From: a virus
Virus record (IMG/VR): IMGVR_UViG_3300000265_000002
Coordinates: 24,352 to 47,086 of that record
DNA: 22,735 nt
Reading direction: 5' to 3' (one strand)
Shown piece after piece: positions 2 through 21,746 of this stretch. Each line of letters begins with the position of its first letter. Position 1 is the stretch's first letter. The notes beneath the pieces were generated by a model that did not search any database, was not told the origin of the DNA, and saw nothing but the letters and a program-made list of their open reading frames with translations. Both the position numbers and the translations under genes were made by a program.

Positions 2-3000
2 GATAAAATCTTCTTAGATGTATTTGATACGGCAGGTATTAAGAGTACCTATTCGGCAACTATTGTTATGCCGAATGCAGATTTTACTGATGGCATTTAT
101 GGCGCATATAGAAGAGACGATTTAGAGTTTTCATCAAAGAAACAGTTCTCAGTAAGAAGAACAAATACTGATACTGAGAATGACATTTTCAATAATGTCA
201 TTTCTTTCAATGAACCTCACCAATTCTTAACTGGTGAATCTGTAAGAATATTATCTGATAATGGTAACTTACCTGATGGTATTGAAGAGGATAGAGTTTA
301 TTTTGTTATTACAGATTCTCTAGATCCAGTTGGATTAGGAACTACACAGATCAAACTGGCAACATCACTATCAGACTCCTTCCAAGAAAATGTGGTATCT
401 ATTAATGAAAAAGGCGGAAACTTAAAGATTATCAGTAAAGTATCTGATAAAGTTGCTGGAGATTATGGACATCCTCTCCAATGGGATGATCAATACAATC
501 AATGGTATTTAAATGTATCAAAGATTTCTGTCAGTAATCTAGGAGAAAATGATCTTTATAATGGTATTGTTGGACTTGGAACGACATCTCTTGGCAATGC
601 TACATCCAGAACTTACTTTAAGAGAAAGATTGATAATAGATCATATTCTGACAACCTCTATAGTTTGAGATTTGTTATTCCAAAAGATTCTAACATTGAA
701 TCTAGAGATCCACTTGATTCATTTATTTTACAAGAATCTAGTGCAGGCATTACAACATCTACAGAAGTTGTAAAGTATTTTGATCCAACAGGATCACTAT
801 CACTATCAAACTCAACAGAACTTAGAAATCCAAGATTTATTTCCACATGTAGTTGGAGTGCTGGTCAAATCACTGTTGGCACAGAACTACCACACGATCT
901 TGTTTCTGGTTCTGAAGTAACTATTATTAATGCTATCAGTGCTAATAATACTGATGGAACATTTAATAAAGGTTATAACGGATCATTTACTGTTACTGGT
1001 GTCAATAACTCTAGAGAGTTTACCTATAACTATGAATATGATCCAGGTGCATTCCAAAGTGATGTAAATACGAGAGACGAAAATCTTCCACGTTTCTATA
1101 AGAGTAAGTTAAGAAATACTTTCCAAGCATATAAGATTGAGAATGTTAAGCAATACATTCCAAGTTATCAGGATGGTGTTTATCATATTATTCCACTAAG
1201 AGCTTCAGAGTCTCCTATTGTTGCACCATTTACTGATAAGAAATATACACAGTCTTTAAGGAATCTATATCCTAGACTTGATAGAGACAATCTAGTATCA
1301 GATCCAAAAGAAGCAAGATCATTTGCTACCTCAGAGAAGATTGGTATTGTTGTTGTAGATGATCCACACAATAGTTTGACTAAAGAATCATCAAGATCAT
1401 TCTTAAAAGATCTTGGTGTGGGTGTTGGAGTAACACACATTGTATCTGATAGTGTGGGAGTATCCCATACAATCTTTACTGATATTGATCATAGTCTTTT
1501 TGGTATTACAAACCTAAGTATCCAAAGTATTGGATCTCAATATATTCCAGGCATTTACTATAATGTCCCATTAACATCTGGAGTATCATCAACTACAGGA
1601 TTTAATGCAACTGCTAGAGTGAGCGTTAGTGCTGCTGGTACTATTACAGATGTTACTATCATGAATCCTGGTAGTGCATATGGTATTGGTAATACATTAT
1701 CACTTGCAACAAATATAAGCAGACAGGTTGGATCGTATGATGCGACAGTAAGAGTTGAAGGTATTAATAATGCAACTGGCGAAACTCTAGAAGTTTCTGG
1801 TATTGGAACTGGTAACTATACAAATCTGTATAGAATCTCTGGATATGAAGTTGGAGATGCTAAGAAGGTATTTGCTTATTCATCTGAAGATATTATAGAA
1901 CCAAATACTGGTGTAAATAGAATCATCATTAGATCTACTGATAATGCTTCGATTATTAATGTTGGTAGATCAATCAAATCTTCCAGTGTCATTTATGATA
2001 ATAGAGTTGGAGTTGCTACCTTTACATTCCCAAGAGCTCATGGTTTCTCTGTAGATGATAAAGTTAGAGTTGGTGGAGCAACAACTGAAGTATTCAATGG
2101 AGACTTTATTGTTAAGTCTGTAGAATCTACAAGTTCTTTTGTTGCACCAACAAAGTTAAGTATCAATGTTAAAGGGTGGGATACTATAACTCCTATCGGA
2201 ACTCCTATCTTCCATCCACATGGTTTAACATCAAGAGGAGGAACAGTTTCAAACGAATCTGAACTATATTCTTCAAGACTATTCACTACTTATGCTGGTG
2301 TTTCTACACAAATCGGATATACTATTAATGTATTCGACTCTAACAATGACCCAATCACTATTAACAGCGCAGTAGAAAGAGGGTTTAAACTTGGGGATTA
2401 TGTTCAGATTGGAAATGAGATTCTAAGAATCAGATCTGGAGTTTCCAGCGATACTGTATATGTTTTTAGATCTCTACTAGGAACTGCAAAAGAAACTCAT
2501 AGAAATACTAGCGTAATCAATAAGATTAAGGTACAACCTATTGAGTTTAGAAGAAACTCTATTATTAAAGCTTCTGCACATACGTTTGAATATGTTGGTT
2601 TTGGTCCTGGTAACTATTCAACATCACTACCAGATAAGCAAGATAGAGTTCTAGGTTCACAGGAAGAAGTTCGCGCTATTTCTGAAAAGAATGAAGGTGG
2701 CGTGGTATTCTTCAGTGGAATGAATAGTAATGGAGATTTCTATACTGGTAACAAGAGAATCAACTCTTCTACTGGTGAAGAAAATCTGTTTGATCTACCT
2801 GTACCAACAGTAACTGGTGAAGAACCAGATAAATCTAAATCAATCTTTGGTTTTGAGGTACTATCTCCAATGGAGATTAGTATTGGTAGAGCTATTAGAG
2901 TTGAAGGTGGAAAGGACAAGAACGTTGTATCAAGATTTGATGGTCCAGTAATCTTTAATAACAAACTCACATCATATTCTACTAAAGGTATTGAAGCAAA

Positions 3001-4213
3001 CTCCTTATATCTCCAGGGTTCTGAAAACGTATCTAGAAAGTATACTTTATCTGGAACAAAACCAGATTATACTGGAAACTATGGTGATATCGTATTTTAT
3101 TCAGATCCTAAGGATAAGGGATATACTGGATGGGTTTATACTCAAGAAAATAGATGGATGAATTGGGGATTTATTGGTGGACCAGCAATCCAACTATCAA
3201 CAAATAATAATAATGTAGGATTTATTTCTGCAATCAATATTGTTGGTCTAGGTCTGACATTAACCACTCAATACACTTCAGGTGCTAATGGTGGTATTTC
3301 TACTATTATTATTGATGATAATCCACTGATTGCCATTTCAACTGGTCCTTATAACCAACTTGTTGGTAATGCCAATCAAATGAACTTTGTTGGTGGTGGT
3401 ATTACACTATCACAGATTGGACCTGCTGGAATAGTTACCGTCTACATGGAGAAGATCAATGTAGAAGCACTAGCACCATCTGGTCCATATCAGTCCATTC
3501 AGTTTTATGAAAGCGATGATACATTTGGCGGTGTTCCTTATTTTGCGTATAACAATGTAACTGGAACACTTGATATTGGTCCTACATCTTGGACAAGTGA
3601 TGGATTTGTAAGCTTTGGAACTACAAATCCAACATCTAAAGTTGAGATTTATACTGCTGCTGAAAGAGCACTTTATATTAACTCTACTTCTGGTACTGGT
3701 GAGATTGTAAGGATTGAAAACGTTGGTAGTGACCTGAGTCCATTCATCATTGATATTGATGGTAACGTTGGTATCAATACTGGAAATGTTCTAGCAGGTA
3801 TTTCTCTACAAGTTAATGGTAATATTGGTGTTGTTGGAGATATTAGATTCTTCAATCCAAATCAATCATTCTATGCTGGATTTAAGGCACAGGATGACCT
3901 TAGCACTAATCTTGTTTGGGAACTTCCAAAGATTGTTGGTTCTGCTAAGAGTATTATGATTAGTGAAACTTCTGGAACTATTGGATGGTCTACAATCTCA
4001 GATCTATTAGCAATAACATCAACCGATGCTCTACCTGAAGGAGATGCAAATCTTTATCATACTGTTCAAAGAGTTGTTAATGCTTACATGAACTCTTTAG
4101 GAAAACAGGTTGGTATTGCAATCACGTATAATCCAACTACACAAAAGATTGATTATGAGATATGTTTAGAAGAAGGTAAATATTTCTTCTCTAGTTTTGG
4201 AGTTATGCTTTGA
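2..4213 (+). CDS. Giant phage tail-fibre/baseplate-type structural protein (5' partial)
   Basis: The reading frame is open to the left edge: 22 sense codons precede the first in-frame ATG at 68, so the true start lies upstream and 68 is probably internal. About 1400 residues are visible. The N-terminal two thirds contain repeated modules built around an H-(G/Q/D)-hydrophobic...G..V.V core (EPHQFLTGESV, LPHDLVSGSEV, RAHGFSVDDKVRV), like the FCCH-type beta modules found in many phage tail proteins. The last third resembles cyanophage fibre proteins: GDIVFYSDPKDKGYTGWVYT, then SFGTTNPTSKVEIY, GNVGIN and an EGDANLYHTVQRV segment near the C-terminus. The protein is rich in Ser, Thr, Gly, Asn and Ile, with almost no Cys. 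A strong terminator follows directly. The structural role is well supported by composition, size and neighbours; its exact place in the tail is not known. Confidence 0.8.
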   Translation, partial: DKIFLDVFDTAGIKSTYSATIVMPNADFTDGIYGAYRRDDLEFSSKKQFSVRRTNTDTENDIFNNVISFNEPHQFLTGESVRILSDNGNLPDGIEEDRVYFVITDSLDPVGLGTTQIKLATSLSDSFQENVVSINEKGGNLKIISKVSDKVAGDYGHPLQWDDQYNQWYLNVSKISVSNLGENDLYNGIVGLGTTSLGNATSRTYFKRKIDNRSYSDNLYSLRFVIPKDSNIESRDPLDSFILQESSAGITTSTEVVKYFDPTGSLSLSNSTELRNPRFISTCSWSAGQITVGTELPHDLVSGSEVTIINAISANNTDGTFNKGYNGSFTVTGVNNSREFTYNYEYDPGAFQSDVNTRDENLPRFYKSKLRNTFQAYKIENVKQYIPSYQDGVYHIIPLRASESPIVAPFTDKKYTQSLRNLYPRLDRDNLVSDPKEARSFATSEKIGIVVVDDPHNSLTKESSRSFLKDLGVGVGVTHIVSDSVGVSHTIFTDIDHSLFGITNLSIQSIGSQYIPGIYYNVPLTSGVSSTTGFNATARVSVSAAGTITDVTIMNPGSAYGIGNTLSLATNISRQVGSYDATVRVEGINNATGETLEVSGIGTGNYTNLYRISGYEVGDAKKVFAYSSEDIIEPNTGVNRIIIRSTDNASIINVGRSIKSSSVIYDNRVGVATFTFPRAHGFSVDDKVRVGGATTEVFNGDFIVKSVESTSSFVAPTKLSINVKGWDTITPIGTPIFHPHGLTSRGGTVSNESELYSSRLFTTYAGVSTQIGYTINVFDSNNDPITINSAVERGFKLGDYVQIGNEILRIRSGVSSDTVYVFRSLLGTAKETHRNTSVINKIKVQPIEFRRNSIIKASAHTFEYVGFGPGNYSTSLPDKQDRVLGSQEEVRAISEKNEGGVVFFSGMNSNGDFYTGNKRINSSTGEENLFDLPVPTVTGEEPDKSKSIFGFEVLSPMEISIGRAIRVEGGKDKNVVSRFDGPVIFNNKLTSYSTKGIEANSLYLQGSENVSRKYTLSGTKPDYTGNYGDIVFYSDPKDKGYTGWVYTQENRWMNWGFIGGPAIQLSTNNNNVGFISAINIVGLGLTLTTQYTSGANGGISTIIIDDNPLIAISTGPYNQLVGNANQMNFVGGGITLSQIGPAGIVTVYMEKINVEALAPSGPYQSIQFYESDDTFGGVPYFAYNNVTGTLDIGPTSWTSDGFVSFGTTNPTSKVEIYTAAERALYINSTSGTGEIVRIENVGSDLSPFIIDIDGNVGINTGNVLAGISLQVNGNIGVVGDIRFFNPNQSFYAGFKAQDDLSTNLVWELPKIVGSAKSIMISETSGTIGWSTISDLLAITSTDALPEGDANLYHTVQRVVNAYMNSLGKQVGIAITYNPTTQKIDYEICLEEGKYFFSSFGVML

Positions 4214-15738: not shown

Positions 15739-15837
15739 ATGTCAACCACAGATAAAATCATTTTTGTGGGATCCTTTTTCATTTTAATGAACTGGGGTGT
15801 TCGCGTTAGTAATGCAACCTTTGAGTTTTTGTTCTGA
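15739..15837 (+). CDS. Small 32-residue putative membrane protein
   Basis: An ATG at 15739 has a good ribosome binding site, GAGGTGA (15730-15736), and opens a 32-codon frame ending at TGA 15835-15837. The product starts MSTTDK, continues with a hydrophobic segment (IIFVGSFFILMNWGVRV, residues 7-23) long enough for one membrane span, and ends FEFLF. Its stop overlaps the next start as TGATG, so translation of the zincin-like gene is probably coupled to it. That gene has no ribosome binding site of its own, which supports this frame being real. I do not recognise the family. Confidence 0.6.
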   Translation: MSTTDKIIFVGSFFILMNWGVRVSNATFEFLF

Positions 15838-16268
15838 TGTTGTACTTAGAACAGTCAGGAAAGGGGTCTAGAAGACTCTCTAAGGACGTTGTAACGTGGT
15901 TTATGTGGAAATACCTTCCTAGACACAATATAGAGGTTTCTTTGCTTCATAGAGGTCTTTTAAGAGAAGGTGTTTATGGGTGGTGTAGCGTACAAGATTG
16001 TGATCATCGACCAAGATCCTTTTTGGTTGAGGTTCATAATAAACTAGACCAAGACACTTTCATTAAAATTTTACTACATGAACTTTGGCATGTCAAACAG
16101 TTTGTTACTGGTGATATGAGAGACAAAAAAGGTAAAAAACACTGGAAAGGAGTTGACATCTCTGATGTTGACTATGATGACGATCCTAGTGAGATTGAAG
16201 CAACTGAAATGGAAAACCCATTGCATTACGAGTACAGTCTTGACAGACTCATCGGATCCATTGTATAA
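15837..16268 (+). CDS. Small zincin-like putative metallopeptidase
   Basis: A 143-residue protein with HELWHVKQF at residues 81-89. H81, E82 and H85 fit the HExxH zinc and catalytic motif, and the helix before it (DTFIKILL) fits the usual hydrophobic lead-in. A PSEIEA segment at 117-122 provides a Glu in the position where small zincins of this type carry the third zinc ligand. Residues 1-75 show an N-terminal helix (WFMWKYLP) and a strand (SFLVEVHNKL). It has no signal peptide, so a cytoplasmic role is expected. Proteins of this size and motif occur in many T4-like phages, often labelled hypothetical or SprT-like; the substrate is unknown. Its start overlaps the stop of the small membrane protein (TGATG). 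Confidence 0.65.
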   Translation: MLYLEQSGKGSRRLSKDVVTWFMWKYLPRHNIEVSLLHRGLLREGVYGWCSVQDCDHRPRSFLVEVHNKLDQDTFIKILLHELWHVKQFVTGDMRDKKGKKHWKGVDISDVDYDDDPSEIEATEMENPLHYEYSLDRLIGSIV

Positions 16269-19355: not shown

Positions 19356-19560
19356 GTGGATTGATGATGTTTTCCGCGTAGAAGAAACACGTTTTATGTG
19401 GAAAAGTGTCCGTAAAGATAATGGTAAAGACTTTTTATTTGGTGTTACTAAAGAAGCGGTGATTCATATGTCACGCTGGCATCTTAAATGTGAACAAGAA
19501 GGAACTCTTGAACAACATACAAAAGTAGTTGGAGATGGTTTTGTTGGTGGAAAACTATAA
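19270..19560 (+). CDS. Hypothetical late-region protein overlapping its neighbour (about 96 residues)
   Basis: The start is uncertain. ATG 19270 gives MTTDQDTCNDSKVKEAESSS onward. A TTG at 19243 with a better purine-rich leader (GGAAAGAAAG) would add nine residues, and ATG about 19396 would make a short form. The conserved-looking part begins after the overlap with the previous gene: EWIDDVFRVEETRFMWKSV, then FLFGVTKEAVIHMSRWHLKC. The Ser/Asp-rich N-terminus lies wholly in the overlap and may be a by-product of the other frame. The stop codon is part of the late promoter TATAAATA for the next gene. Function unknown. Confidence 0.55.
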   Translation: MTTDQDTCNDSKVKEAESSSDSKPNQEYEWIDDVFRVEETRFMWKSVRKDNGKDFLFGVTKEAVIHMSRWHLKCEQEGTLEQHTKVVGDGFVGGKL

Positions 19561-19563
19561 ATA
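19556..19563 (+). promoter_or_regulatory. T4-type late promoter overlapping a stop codon
   Basis: TATAAATA is a perfect T4 late motif, 32 bases before the ATG at 19588. Its bases 19558-19560 are the TAA stop of the upstream gene. Confidence 0.82.
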
Positions 19564-19587
19564 ACACTAAACTGTGTTTATATAAAA

Positions 19588-20025
19588 ATGAAGTCTTACA
19601 AAGAGTTTGTTTCTGAAGCATTCAAAAGAACTGGCAAGAAAATATCCTTTGTAAGACTTCATCATGGGTCTGATGAAGACTCAGTAAAATCAATCAAAAA
19701 GAGTGGTCCTAGACCTTCACCTAAAGGTAGTGAGGGTCCAGGACATTATGTCACTCCAGATAAAAAGAAAGCATCAAAATATGCTGAGTTTACTTCTAAA
19801 TCAAGAAAGAAGAAACCAGCAGTAGTATCATATAGAGTTTCAAAGAAAAGGATTACTAATACAGATAGTATTCCAAAAGGACTTACATCTCAAAAGAAAA
19901 CTACAAGTGAGAAACCAGTTGTAAGAAATACACGAACTGGTCATGTTGCCATGGACGCTGACTATGCGAATAAGAAAATGATTCGTAAGACAGAACCTAT
20001 TATTCGTCGTAAGAGGAAAAAGTAA
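19588..20025 (+). CDS. Putative packaged head protein with an ADP-ribosyltransferase-like segment
   Basis: A 145-residue, very basic protein (C-terminus RRKRKK). The N-terminus, MKSYKEFVSE followed by A11, matches the capsid-targeting sequence of T4 internal head proteins (MKTYQEFIAE followed by A), which the prohead protease gp21 cuts after the Glu. Residues 24-68 resemble the front of ADP-ribosyltransferase/PARP folds: LHHGSDEDSVKSIKKSG, then GSEGPGHYVTPD, then KKASKYAEF, matching HG(T/S)...I...G.....G.GiYfT.d...A..Ya. H26 and Y54 would be the first two active-site residues; a third (Glu or His) is not evident, so activity is uncertain. A perfect late promoter precedes it and TAATG couples it to the next gene. 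T4 packages a larger transferase, Alt, so a packaged small analogue is plausible. Alternatively it is simply a DNA-binding internal protein. Confidence 0.6.
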   Translation: MKSYKEFVSEAFKRTGKKISFVRLHHGSDEDSVKSIKKSGPRPSPKGSEGPGHYVTPDKKKASKYAEFTSKSRKKKPAVVSYRVSKKRITNTDSIPKGLTSQKKTTSEKPVVRNTRTGHVAMDADYANKKMIRKTEPIIRRKRKK

Positions 20026-21746
20026 TGGCAAAGGGAAACGTTGGTAATACTAAAGAATATGTTCAATGTTTAGCATTTGCTCATTTTGCCATCCACAAAT
20101 ATCCTACAAAAAAAGAAGATCAAGAAGAACATAAAAATTCTTTTTATAACCTTTTTGTTACTTCTATAGATCGAAAAAAATATGATATTAAAAAGTCAAA
20201 TCTTAGAGAATATAAAAACTATTTGGGGACAAAATTTCCTTTTATTAGATGTTTAAGAGATTTTAAAACAAAAGTTGGTGAAAGAGGTAAATCTAAAGGA
20301 AAGATTATCGCAGATACTACAGGGCAAAAAGTATATGATGTTGCATTGGAACTTTATAAATCTAAAGTTATTGGTCAAAACTGGGAAAATTATGAATTTC
20401 TAGATCAAACTGATACTTTTACTCAAACTGTAAAAGATGCTGCATTAGAAAAAATTAAAAACGTTTTAGGAATAACATTCAAACTTGATATGCTAGCAAG
20501 TTTTGATATGTTTATTGTTCATAAACAAAAAAAGAACAAAATATTAGATGAAATAAACACTCATATAATAAATGCAGATGATGCAACTATATTGAGAAAC
20601 TATTCATTAAATCAACATACTTATAGAACTATATTAAATCGACATTTTAAATCTTCTTCAAATATAAGACCTCTAGTTGCCGTCTCACTTAAATTGCCAG
20701 GAACTATCGAACAAAAAAAATATATAAACATAGTTGGAACAGAAAATGTAAAGAAAGAACTATCTGAATATATTGATCCATATACTAAATTTTTAACTCT
20801 AGCAATATCATCTAAACCAAATGAGTTAAAATCATTGATAGAAAATCTAATAAAAATAGAATATGGTGAATTTAGAACGGGTTCCAATATATTAACTTGG
20901 GAATTGCCAGTATCTTTTAGATATAAAGTAGCAGCACAAAAGGTGTTTGGTAGAGATATTGAACCATTAAGTGATATGAATTATAAAATAGTTTTTCTTG
21001 CTCAAGGATATGGTGCTGGATGGAATGGATTTGTGAAGGTTGGAAAACAAGGTCCACCTTGGACTGGTGGAGGTGCAGCATCAACATTTGAATTTTTCTA
21101 TGAACAATATCCAGAATACTCTAAGGTTATACAGAAATTAGTTCAGTTAAGAGCAAAAGCTTTTAATTATGTTTTAACTGGTAAAGAAAATGGAAAAATA
21201 GATACTTCTACTTTTTCAAATAAGTTAAAATCATTATATCAAGGAGCACTAAGAGAAATAACAACCAGAAAAATACTAGTTAATACTATTGGTGTGAAAT
21301 ATACTAACATTGAGAAATTTTTTAATCTTTATGATGAGGAAAATAAAAGTAAAGATAGTATGACAATGTATCAAGTTGCCGTTATTAATTTAGTTAGGGG
21401 GAAAATAAATCCTTCAATTAAAATAACAAACAAATACGCAAGTTTTAATATGGATGTTGGTAAAAAATCAGAAAGGAAAGCAACATCTTCTGAAACTCAA
21501 AAAAGAATAAAGGCACATTATGCACATGCACAACTTGCGTGGTTTACTTTTATTGGTGGAAAGAGTTATCAAACATTTCTCAAGCAAAGAATGTTTTTGA
21601 ACATATATGGAGTTATCAGCAAAAAGGGATATAAGATATTTGATTACAATAAAAATATTACCACAGTTAAAAGTGGAATCACCGCAGCAATGAAAGGTAT
21701 GCCTAAAGCAGCATTTGACTCTGCTCCTCACTTGTTACTGTCATGA
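20025..21746 (+). CDS. Large basic protein of unknown function, possibly nuclease-like
   Basis: A 573-residue protein, MAKGNVGNTKEYVQCLAFAH onward, whose start overlaps the previous stop as TAATG. By eye it is more A-rich than its neighbours, with many AAA and ATA codons, which suggests a separate origin. Asp161 in LASFDMFIVHK and, 60 residues later, LVAVSLKLPGT (S221, K223) resemble the D...(S)xK core of divergent PD-(D/E)XK nucleases found in some phages. A Gly-rich stretch (GYGAGWNGFVKVGKQGPPW, about residues 326-344) and a helical basic C-terminal half follow. No signal peptide or membrane span. It is co-transcribed late with the putative packaged protein and may be its partner or a second packaged protein. 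The nuclease reading is weak. Confidence 0.65.
   Translation: MAKGNVGNTKEYVQCLAFAHFAIHKYPTKKEDQEEHKNSFYNLFVTSIDRKKYDIKKSNLREYKNYLGTKFPFIRCLRDFKTKVGERGKSKGKIIADTTGQKVYDVALELYKSKVIGQNWENYEFLDQTDTFTQTVKDAALEKIKNVLGITFKLDMLASFDMFIVHKQKKNKILDEINTHIINADDATILRNYSLNQHTYRTILNRHFKSSSNIRPLVAVSLKLPGTIEQKKYINIVGTENVKKELSEYIDPYTKFLTLAISSKPNELKSLIENLIKIEYGEFRTGSNILTWELPVSFRYKVAAQKVFGRDIEPLSDMNYKIVFLAQGYGAGWNGFVKVGKQGPPWTGGGAASTFEFFYEQYPEYSKVIQKLVQLRAKAFNYVLTGKENGKIDTSTFSNKLKSLYQGALREITTRKILVNTIGVKYTNIEKFFNLYDEENKSKDSMTMYQVAVINLVRGKINPSIKITNKYASFNMDVGKKSERKATSSETQKRIKAHYAHAQLAWFTFIGGKSYQTFLKQRMFLNIYGVISKKGYKIFDYNKNITTVKSGITAAMKGMPKAAFDSAPHLLLS

What the first reader, a model, noticed from the sequence alone, without database searches (positions are those of the whole stretch)
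19556..20025. Small ADP-ribosyltransferase-like protein carrying a T4-type capsid-targeting N-terminus
Seen: MKSYKEFVSE followed by A at the N-terminus, LHHGS and GPGHYVT spaced as in ART/PARP folds, a very basic tail, and a perfect TATAAATA late promoter. Known: T4 internal proteins IPII and IPIII start MKTYQEFIAE-A and are cut there by gp21, and T4 packages the transferase Alt for injection. Inference: this phage packages a short transferase-like effector into its head and delivers it with the DNA. A 145-residue version would be far smaller than Alt.
Basis: partly seen in the sequence, partly recalled or inferred. Interest (0 to 1): 0.78.

Follow-up and report, generated by a model that had tools for sequence, protein, structure and literature searches.

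The report
Capsid-tagged ADP-ribosyltransferase-like phage protein
A T4-like phage, probably of cyanobacteria, carries a small protein that joins T4's "pack me into the head" tag to an ADP-ribosyltransferase-type domain; relatives in a Salmonella and a Dickeya phage have been detected in purified virus particles, so it is probably delivered into the cell with the DNA, although whether this version is an active enzyme is unsettled.

Summary
The ORF at 19588-20025 (145 aa) starts MKSYKEFVSE-A behind TATAAATA at 19556 and carries LHHGS and GPGHYVT. The residues reported to target T4 IPIII to the head (4 and 7) are aromatic and Phe in 19 of 19 aligned sequences; the processing Glu10 is kept in 18. 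A Sajous1 homolog (gp116, 35% identical over residues 1-94, tag included) has 10 spectra in a published virion proteome; a LIMEstone1 homolog (ORF173, Tyr at 7) has one peptide. Neither paper's text mentions 'ribosyl'. Two of three such homologs tested pass Pfam's ART-PolyVal cut-off, and a model of one matches diphtheria toxin and PARPs moderately. The window's clade keeps the catalytic His and Tyr, but the Glu invariant in the homologs is Lys, Ser or Arg in 13 of 13, so transfer activity is open. Two further findings: the tag, under late promoters, precedes 37 BLASTP-separate protein clusters in viral contigs; and the gene behind the ART, whose start overlaps its stop, is replaced by a distant homolog between two phages over 99% identical on both sides. 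Verdict: a new variant of a known kind (T4 internal protein plus polyvalent-type ART); packaging likely, chemistry and target unknown.

The parts
19556..19563 (+). T4-type late promoter box TATAAATA
   Evidence: perfect copy within 60 nt of the start in 8 of 14 relatives
19588..20025 (+). gene for the 145-aa CTS-tagged ART-like protein
   Evidence: homologs
19588..19617 (+). residues 1-10, capsid-targeting-like decapeptide MKSYKEFVSE; predicted cut after Glu10
   Evidence: Y/F4 and F7 in 19 of 19, E10 in 18 of 19, A11 in 13 of 13 of this clade; T4 rules in PMC9026906 section 10
19657..19671 (+). LHHGS, ART motif 1; His26 invariant
   Evidence: H26-G27-S28 invariant in 19 sequences
19735..19755 (+). 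GPGHYVT, ART motif 2; Tyr54 invariant
   Evidence: Y54 invariant in 19 sequences
19936..19956 (+). TGHVAMD, motif of this clade; H119 and D123 invariant in 13 of 13; D123 is a candidate for the missing third catalytic residue
   Evidence: the role is inference
19999..20022 (+). basic C-terminal tail IIRRKRKK
20025..21746 (+). 573-aa partner gene; its ATG overlaps the ART stop (TAATG); member of a fast-evolving family exchanged as a cassette in relatives

Best explanation
The gene encodes an internal head protein. Expressed late, it is drawn into the prohead scaffold by its first ten residues, which work like the capsid targeting sequence (CTS) of T4 IPI-III. The prohead protease then probably cuts after Glu10, and the freed 135-residue basic protein stays with the packaged DNA and enters the host with it. 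There it acts at the first moment of infection through an ART-fold domain related to those of polyvalent proteins, most likely modifying or blocking a host or defence component. Shown: sequence, tag, homology, and published virion detection of two homologs. Inferred: packaging in this phage, cleavage, injection, NAD chemistry, target, and a cyanobacterial host.
For: Tag: residue 4 aromatic and residue 7 Phe in 19 of 19, Glu10 in 18 of 19 aligned sequences, down to 22% overall identity, while the stretch behind varies in length. The 21-residue N-terminus alone has one PHROG hit at E up to 1, the 'internal head protein' family (E 0.056). Virions: Sajous1 gp116 with 10 spectra, LIMEstone1 ORF173 with 1 peptide. 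Independent check of the tag: in 74 distinct ORFs chosen only by late promoter plus residues 1-7, a [LIVMFC]xE[ASGNTC] site lies within the unselected residues 8-14 in 46, against a mean of 0.7% (maximum 2.7%) in control windows. Domain: homologs L026 and L034 pass ART-PolyVal (42.3 and 41.1 bits, cut-off 31.2). The model of L026 (pLDDT 73.5, pTM 0.69) matches diphtheria toxin (Z 8.3, 3.8 A, 130 residues), a cyanophage A4 pre-ejectosome chain (Z 8.7, 4.1 A, 120 residues) and PARPs (about Z 7). T4-type gp23 and gp21 protease are in 2 of 6 records searched, the own record and five relatives. A Photo_RC (psbA/psbD-type) gene is in the record of L003, 97-99% identical to the window where they align.
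Against: The homologs' Glu column is K, S or R in 13 of 13 sequences of this clade. The window protein's own model is poor (pLDDT 53, residues 91-145 below 50) and its best matches have Z 7.0 or less; even the homolog's Z of 8 to 9 is only just above the 7 to 8 that the tool calls typical for models without a clear match. LIMEstone1 ORF173 has Tyr, not Phe, at residue 7 and rests on one peptide; the Sajous1 paper warns that low spectrum counts may be contamination. gp21 was not found in the own record or three others, all possibly fragments. In three relatives the decapeptide is internal, about 70 residues into a longer ORF, with no Met directly before it, unlike T4. Not all tag-like starts are in virions: 3 of 4 in Sajous1 (p 0.068; 0.012 for at least 10 spectra) and 2 of 5 in LIMEstone1. 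L036 has His at residue 10. One tagged ORF elsewhere is an endolysin-like glucosaminidase, an odd cargo for injection.
Confidence: 0.66

Rival explanations
1. The protein is packaged but is a catalytically dead ART-fold protein: it binds NAD, ADP-ribose or a host or defence protein and blocks it, as T4 IPI blocks a restriction enzyme.
For: The Glu invariant in six aligned homologs is lost in 13 of 13 sequences of this clade, while H26 and Y54 stay. T4 IPI is an inhibitor and IPIII overcomes an unknown defence (PMC9026906, PMC9391042, passages).
Against: His26, Tyr54, H119 and D123 are all invariant in the clade, which fits a kept active site; H-Y-D active sites are described for ARTs of polyvalent proteins (PMC5512222 section 9).
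Confidence: 0.35
2. A KptA/Tpt1-like NAD-dependent RNA or DNA phosphotransferase, perhaps part of an injected nucleic-acid repair kit with the tagged polynucleotide-kinase-like protein encoded next to it in one relative.
For: The best VIA-align rows for the window model are Tpt1/KptA (Z 7.0, 2.9 A, 80 residues). A CTS-tagged P-loop kinase gene lies directly upstream in G004; it hits AAA_33 and a polynucleotide kinase PHROG.
Against: Only chain residues 88-172 of Tpt1 align, so the N-terminal lobe with most of Tpt1's catalytic residues (recalled) is missing. Much of the aligned C-terminal part of the model has pLDDT below 50. In G003 the kinase gene is far from the ART gene.
Confidence: 0.1
3. 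The N-terminus only looks like a CTS; it is a general signature of late structural proteins in these phages, and the protein is a scaffold or DNA-condensing head protein rather than an effector.
For: The tag stands on many other late proteins of unknown function. The protein is very basic (pI 10.55).
Against: The T4 tag residues and a cleavage-type site are both present, and an ART-type domain with invariant His and Tyr is not needed for DNA binding.
Confidence: 0.15
4. A chance resemblance of an unrelated small ORF to both T4 internal proteins and ARTs.
For: Pfam scores of the window protein are below the curated cut-offs.
Against: 196 phage records (E up to 1) and 27 viral loci hold matches; in the 60 rows listed, each match runs from residue 1 through the ART motifs.
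Confidence: 0.02

Closest known systems
T4 internal proteins IPI, IPII, IPIII
   Same: N-terminal decapeptide: as in IPII and IPIII, aromatic 4, Phe 7, Glu 10, Ala 11.
   Different: The body here is an ART-type domain. Residue 8 is Val instead of Ile. The 60 nt before the T4 ip genes show no perfect TATAAATA.
T4 Alt (head-packaged ADP-ribosyltransferase)
   Same: An ART-superfamily protein carried in the head and delivered at infection (for this protein inferred).
   Different: Alt is 682 aa, of the R-S-E class (PMC5512222), and its N-terminus MELITELFDED is not IP-like; here 145 aa with H and Y motifs.
ART domains of polyvalent proteins (ART-PolyVal, PF18760; DUF3990, PF13151)
   Same: Homologs L026 and L034 pass the ART-PolyVal cut-off and align with the window protein from the tag through the ART core.
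   Different: Stand-alone domain behind a CTS instead of a module in a large protein; this clade is below the cut-off and lacks the homologs' Glu.
Vi01_183 / Sajous1 gp116 / LIMEstone1 ORF173 (phrog_4700)
   Same: Same gene family, tag plus ART core; gp116 and ORF173 are listed in virion proteomes.
   Different: They keep the third-motif Glu. Most records name them hypothetical or structural; single ones say N-acetyltransferase or DarB-like antirestriction, and UniProt calls the Mutine one ART-PolyVal-like.

Membership tests
T4-type CTS-bearing internal protein | First ten residues with the targeting determinants (residues 4 and 7) | tested here: met
   Y/F at 4 and F at 7 in 19 of 19 aligned; LIMEstone1 ORF173, not in that alignment, has Tyr at 7
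T4-type CTS-bearing internal protein | Processing determinants (residues 8 and 10, L/I-x-E) | tested here: inconclusive
   E10 present; residue 8 is Val here, I or L in 11 of 13 of this clade; cleavage not testable
T4-type CTS-bearing internal protein | Present in the virion | not testable with these tools
   Listed for two homologs in published proteomes; this phage is a metagenomic record
T4-type CTS-bearing internal protein | Phage encodes a gp21-type prohead protease | tested here: inconclusive
   Found in 2 of 6 records searched, not in the window's own 47-kb record, which may be a fragment
ART superfamily, H-Y-[E/D] class | His in motif 1 and Tyr in motif 2 | tested here: met
   H26 and Y54 invariant in 19 of 19
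ART superfamily, H-Y-[E/D] class | Third acidic residue | tested here: inconclusive
   Homologs' Glu column is K/S/R in 13 of 13; D123, invariant in 13 of 13, is a candidate, but the alignment register is uncertain
ART superfamily, H-Y-[E/D] class | ART fold | tested here: inconclusive
   Window model pLDDT 53, best Z 7.0. Homolog model: moderate matches to ART-fold entries, Z up to 8.8
ART-PolyVal PF18760 / DUF3990 PF13151 | Score above the curated cut-off | tested here: not met
   17.3 of 31.2 and 20 of 32.2 bits for the window protein; PF18760 met by 2 of 3 homologs tested
Alt/VIP2 (R-S-E) ARTs | Arg-Ser-Glu active site | tested here: not met
   H and Y motifs instead; class definition from PMC5512222
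ART superfamily, H-Y-[E/D] class | NAD-dependent ADP-ribosyl transfer | not testable with these tools
   needs purified protein
KptA/Tpt1 phosphotransferases | N-terminal lobe with catalytic residues (recalled) in front of the ART-like lobe | tested here: inconclusive
   Only chain residues 88-172 align; the window protein has 18 residues before the aligned part, which is too few for that lobe, but model confidence is low

The most novel reading that the evidence does not exclude
The T4 capsid-targeting decapeptide is a general shipping label of T4-like and cyanomyovirus-type phages, in front of dozens of unrelated cargo families, so that the injected proteome can be read off genomes. This protein is one such cargo: an ART with a rewired active site (H-Y-D123, or none) that works with a translationally coupled partner exchanged as a cassette between otherwise near-identical phages, as a fast-changing first-strike or anti-defence locus.
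Probability: 0.35. Interest if true: 0.85.

Novelty: new variant of a known kind. Interest (0 to 1): 0.62.

Why it matters
It links two known ideas that I did not find joined in the searches made: the T4 CTS, studied on T4's own internal proteins, and polyvalent-type ART domains, predicted to be injected. The same tag-plus-ART gene in cyanophage-like phages and in Ackermannviridae, with virion evidence for the latter already in print, makes injection of an ART testable in easily grown Salmonella phages. If the tag can be trusted in cyanophage-like phages, cargo injected into cyanobacteria could be predicted by sequence.

Tried and rejected
Alt homology: rejected, different motifs and N-terminus. 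PDB sequence searches with the family profiles gave nothing better than E 0.31 (deoxyadenosine kinase, tankyrase, PARP15) and are not used as proof. The partner gene: no Pfam, PHROG, PDB or phage-record match worth naming (the window's own; six relatives; one relative against phage records; the family profile against the PDB). hhalign found no kinship between it and 67 tagged ORFs (best probability 1.5%). TATAAATA by itself: not significant. PADLOC hits (PDC-M13B, E 3e-5) say nothing on this phage's role. A fixed-spacing promoter-plus-tag pattern in the window gave no match because I set the gap to 23 instead of 24 bases.

Rows dropped before counts: L010, L011, L012, L016, L023 repeat earlier loci; L003's protein was left out of A2 as 99% identical; L008 holds only the last 23 residues and was left out; L018 duplicates L017; six of 13 loci of the Ackermannviridae type went into A2. 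LIMEstone1 ORF173 was not in A2. 'This clade' means the 13 IMG/VR-type sequences, window included; I did not look up habitats or hosts. 'Ackermannviridae' for L024-L036 rests on length and identity to named records; taxonomy lines were seen for Vi01, Sajous1 and LIMEstone1. The first count of cleavage-type sites (54 of 74 in residues 7-14, control mean 0.9%) let the selected Phe7 serve as first letter, so the stricter count (46 of 74 in residues 8-14) is the one used. LIMEstone1: 150,000 of 152,427 bases scanned; the looser pattern hit 15 frames, eight at or one codon from annotated starts, of which I judged five CTS-like by eye (ORF007, 079, 080, 167, 173).

Full report
What is there. The window is part of a 47,086-base virus record. 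The first 977 residues of its large tail-fibre ORF (68-4213) are 37-43% identical to Synechococcus, Prochlorococcus and uncultured marine phages in the rows listed. The record of L003, whose DNA is 97-99% identical to the window where the two align, carries a Photo_RC gene (psbA/psbD-type), so the host is probably a cyanobacterium (inference). The finding's ORF is real: 19588-20025, 145 aa, TATAAATA 24 nt upstream, its stop overlapping the start of the next gene.

The tag. According to a review (PMC9026906, section 10 read, passages of section 9), the first ten residues of T4 IPIII suffice for entry into the head, residues 4 and 7 matter most for targeting, 8 and 10 for processing, and gp21 cuts after L/I-x-E. 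In an alignment of 19 sequences (13 of this clade, 6 of the Ackermannviridae type) residue 4 is Y or F in 19, residue 7 is F in 19, residue 10 is E in 18 (His in L036), and residue 11 is A in all 13 of this clade, while the stretch behind differs in length. The first 21 residues alone have a single PHROG hit, the internal head protein family phrog_2667 (E 0.056). T4 as control: the strict pattern finds IPII, IPIII, gp61.1 and gene 38 (probably a false match) at annotated starts, and two unannotated frames; IPI fits only the first seven residues.

A departure. In L014, L015 and L019 the decapeptide sits about 70 residues inside a longer ORF with a late promoter before the long start and no Met directly before the decapeptide. 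It is thus kept even where it is not the translation start, which argues for a protein-level role but is unlike T4.

Virion evidence. tblastn at E up to 1 finds 196 phage records, 150 of them named Salmonella phages; the best are 35% identical over residues 1-94, tag included, and none covers 80% of the query. In Sajous1 the homolog is gp116, listed with 10 spectra in CsCl-purified virions (PMC10892097, Table 6 read); the paper warns that low counts may be contamination. In LIMEstone1 it is ORF173, found through the Vi01 homolog, 28% identical to the window protein over residues 1-108, with Tyr at residue 7; it is listed with one unique peptide (PMC3296691, section with Table 2 read) and annotated as a confirmed structural protein with a putative late promoter just upstream. 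The main text of the first paper does not contain 'ribosyl' or 'internal head', that of the second not 'ribosyl' or 'internal'. Of 214 Sajous1 CDS, four start with the strict pattern (gp82, 116, 215, 216); three are among the 60 products detected (hypergeometric p 0.068), all three among the 33 with at least 10 spectra (p 0.012). In LIMEstone1 two of five tag-like starts, ORF080 and ORF173, are marked confirmed structural.

The domain. The window protein scores below the curated Pfam cut-offs for DUF3990 and ART-PolyVal. Of three homologs of the Ackermannviridae type, L026 and L034 pass ART-PolyVal and L036 does not. A model of L026's protein (pLDDT 73.5) matches, by Foldseek at E about 0.001, an anti-CRISPR protein (6kyf; recalled to be the ART AcrIF11), a cyanophage A4 pre-ejectosome chain, MbcT, diphtheria toxin and PARPs; by VIA-align the catalytic domain of a Streptomyces insecticidal protein (Z 8.8), the cyanophage chain (8.7), diphtheria toxin (8.3) and PARPs (about 7). 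These are moderate values. The window protein's model is poor (pLDDT 53); its best rows are Tpt1/KptA at Z 7.0, and most of the 43 rows shown are named as ART-type enzymes or toxins; Z below 8 may mean only a common arrangement.

The active site. His26 and Tyr54 are invariant in all 19. The column that is Glu in all six aligned Ackermannviridae-type proteins is K in 11, S in 1 and R in 1 of the 13 of this clade. The clade has invariant R116, T117, G118, H119, M122 and D123. ARTs of polyvalent proteins are described as H-Y-D (PMC5512222, section 9 read), so D123 may stand in; the register of the alignment there is uncertain. This is the chief reason for not calling the protein a transferase.

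The neighbour. In 9 of 14 loci examined, window included, plus a tenth that runs off the contig, the gene directly behind the ART encodes a 573-694 aa homolog of the window's 20025-21746 product, starting from 1 nt of overlap to 40 nt after the ART stop; three loci have no ORF of at least 100 aa starting within 160 nt, and one has an unrelated ORF. Searching with the L003 partner gave L190, where an ART gene also stands in front, L189, where none was found in the 3 kb upstream, and L191, which begins inside the partner and cannot tell. L003 and L004 are 99.7% identical up to the first bases of this gene and 99.8% identical again from 2.36 kb on, with no nucleotide match between; their partners are about 24% identical over 288 residues. 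The window breaks from both within 15 nt of the same place and resumes with L004 only in a 32-nt match. So in one pair with known flanks the partner was exchanged as a cassette behind a constant ART. In G004 a tagged P-loop kinase gene overlaps the start of the ART gene instead.

How wide the tag is. Residues 8-14 were not selected for, yet 46 of 74 distinct ORFs have a cleavage-type site there (control mean 0.7%, maximum 2.7%) and Glu stands at position 10 in 44 of 74. The 67 ORFs of at least 90 aa fall in 37 BLASTP clusters, including cytidylyltransferase-like proteins and a glucosaminidase (ten ORFs scanned against Pfam and ten against PHROGs). I did not classify these contigs.

In print. 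Searches of the held open-access library: 'capsid targeting' with 'cyanophage' gives one paper, the T4 review PMC9026906; 'ADP-ribosyltransferase' with 'Ackermannviridae' gives five, seen only as listings; the other searches showed no paper on a CTS-tagged ART in title or abstract start. PMC9503650 (passages) argues that about 44% of the phage ARTs found there lie in contexts suggesting head packaging; its main text does not contain 'DUF3990' or 'Ackermann'. PMC9391042 and PMC3012670 were seen as passages, and passages of PMC11721090 and PMC3121705 had no 'ribosyl'. Most subscription papers are not held, so novelty is stated only against these searches.

Verdict.

Noticed in passing
window 20025-21746; L003:8441-10435; L004:2072-3958: Fast-evolving 573-694 aa protein family directly behind the ART gene; replaced by a distant homolog between L003 and L004, which are over 99% identical on both sides; no known family found.
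   Followed up: partly
L062-L141: Tag-like N-termini under late promoters on 37 BLASTP-separate protein clusters in viral contigs, with an unselected cleavage-type site in residues 8-14 of 46 of 74 ORFs.
   Followed up: partly
L047:1501-2139; L049:886-1521 (minus strand): CTS-tagged P-loop kinase (AAA_33, polynucleotide-kinase-like); in G004 its end overlaps the start of the ART gene.
   Followed up: partly
L126:3678-4856 (minus strand): Another tagged ORF whose start (LYHFTSVKGLQSIL...SLTRD) looks ART-like by eye; no Pfam or PHROG match at E 0.01.
   Followed up: no
T4 NC_000866 18966-19130: T4 gp61.1 begins MKTFKEFIKED, an IP-like N-terminus on a 54-aa hypothetical protein.
   Followed up: no
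G002:C1:76961-78555: Photo_RC (psbA/psbD-type) gene matched in two pieces about 660 bases apart, possibly interrupted by an intron.
   Followed up: no
L014:76-285; L015:5791-6000; L019:5788-6000: About 70-residue N-terminal extension in front of an internal decapeptide in three relatives.
   Followed up: partly
window 15837-16268: 143-aa ORF matching phrog_10499 (E 2.5e-40), with weak metallopeptidase-like Pfam hits.
   Followed up: no
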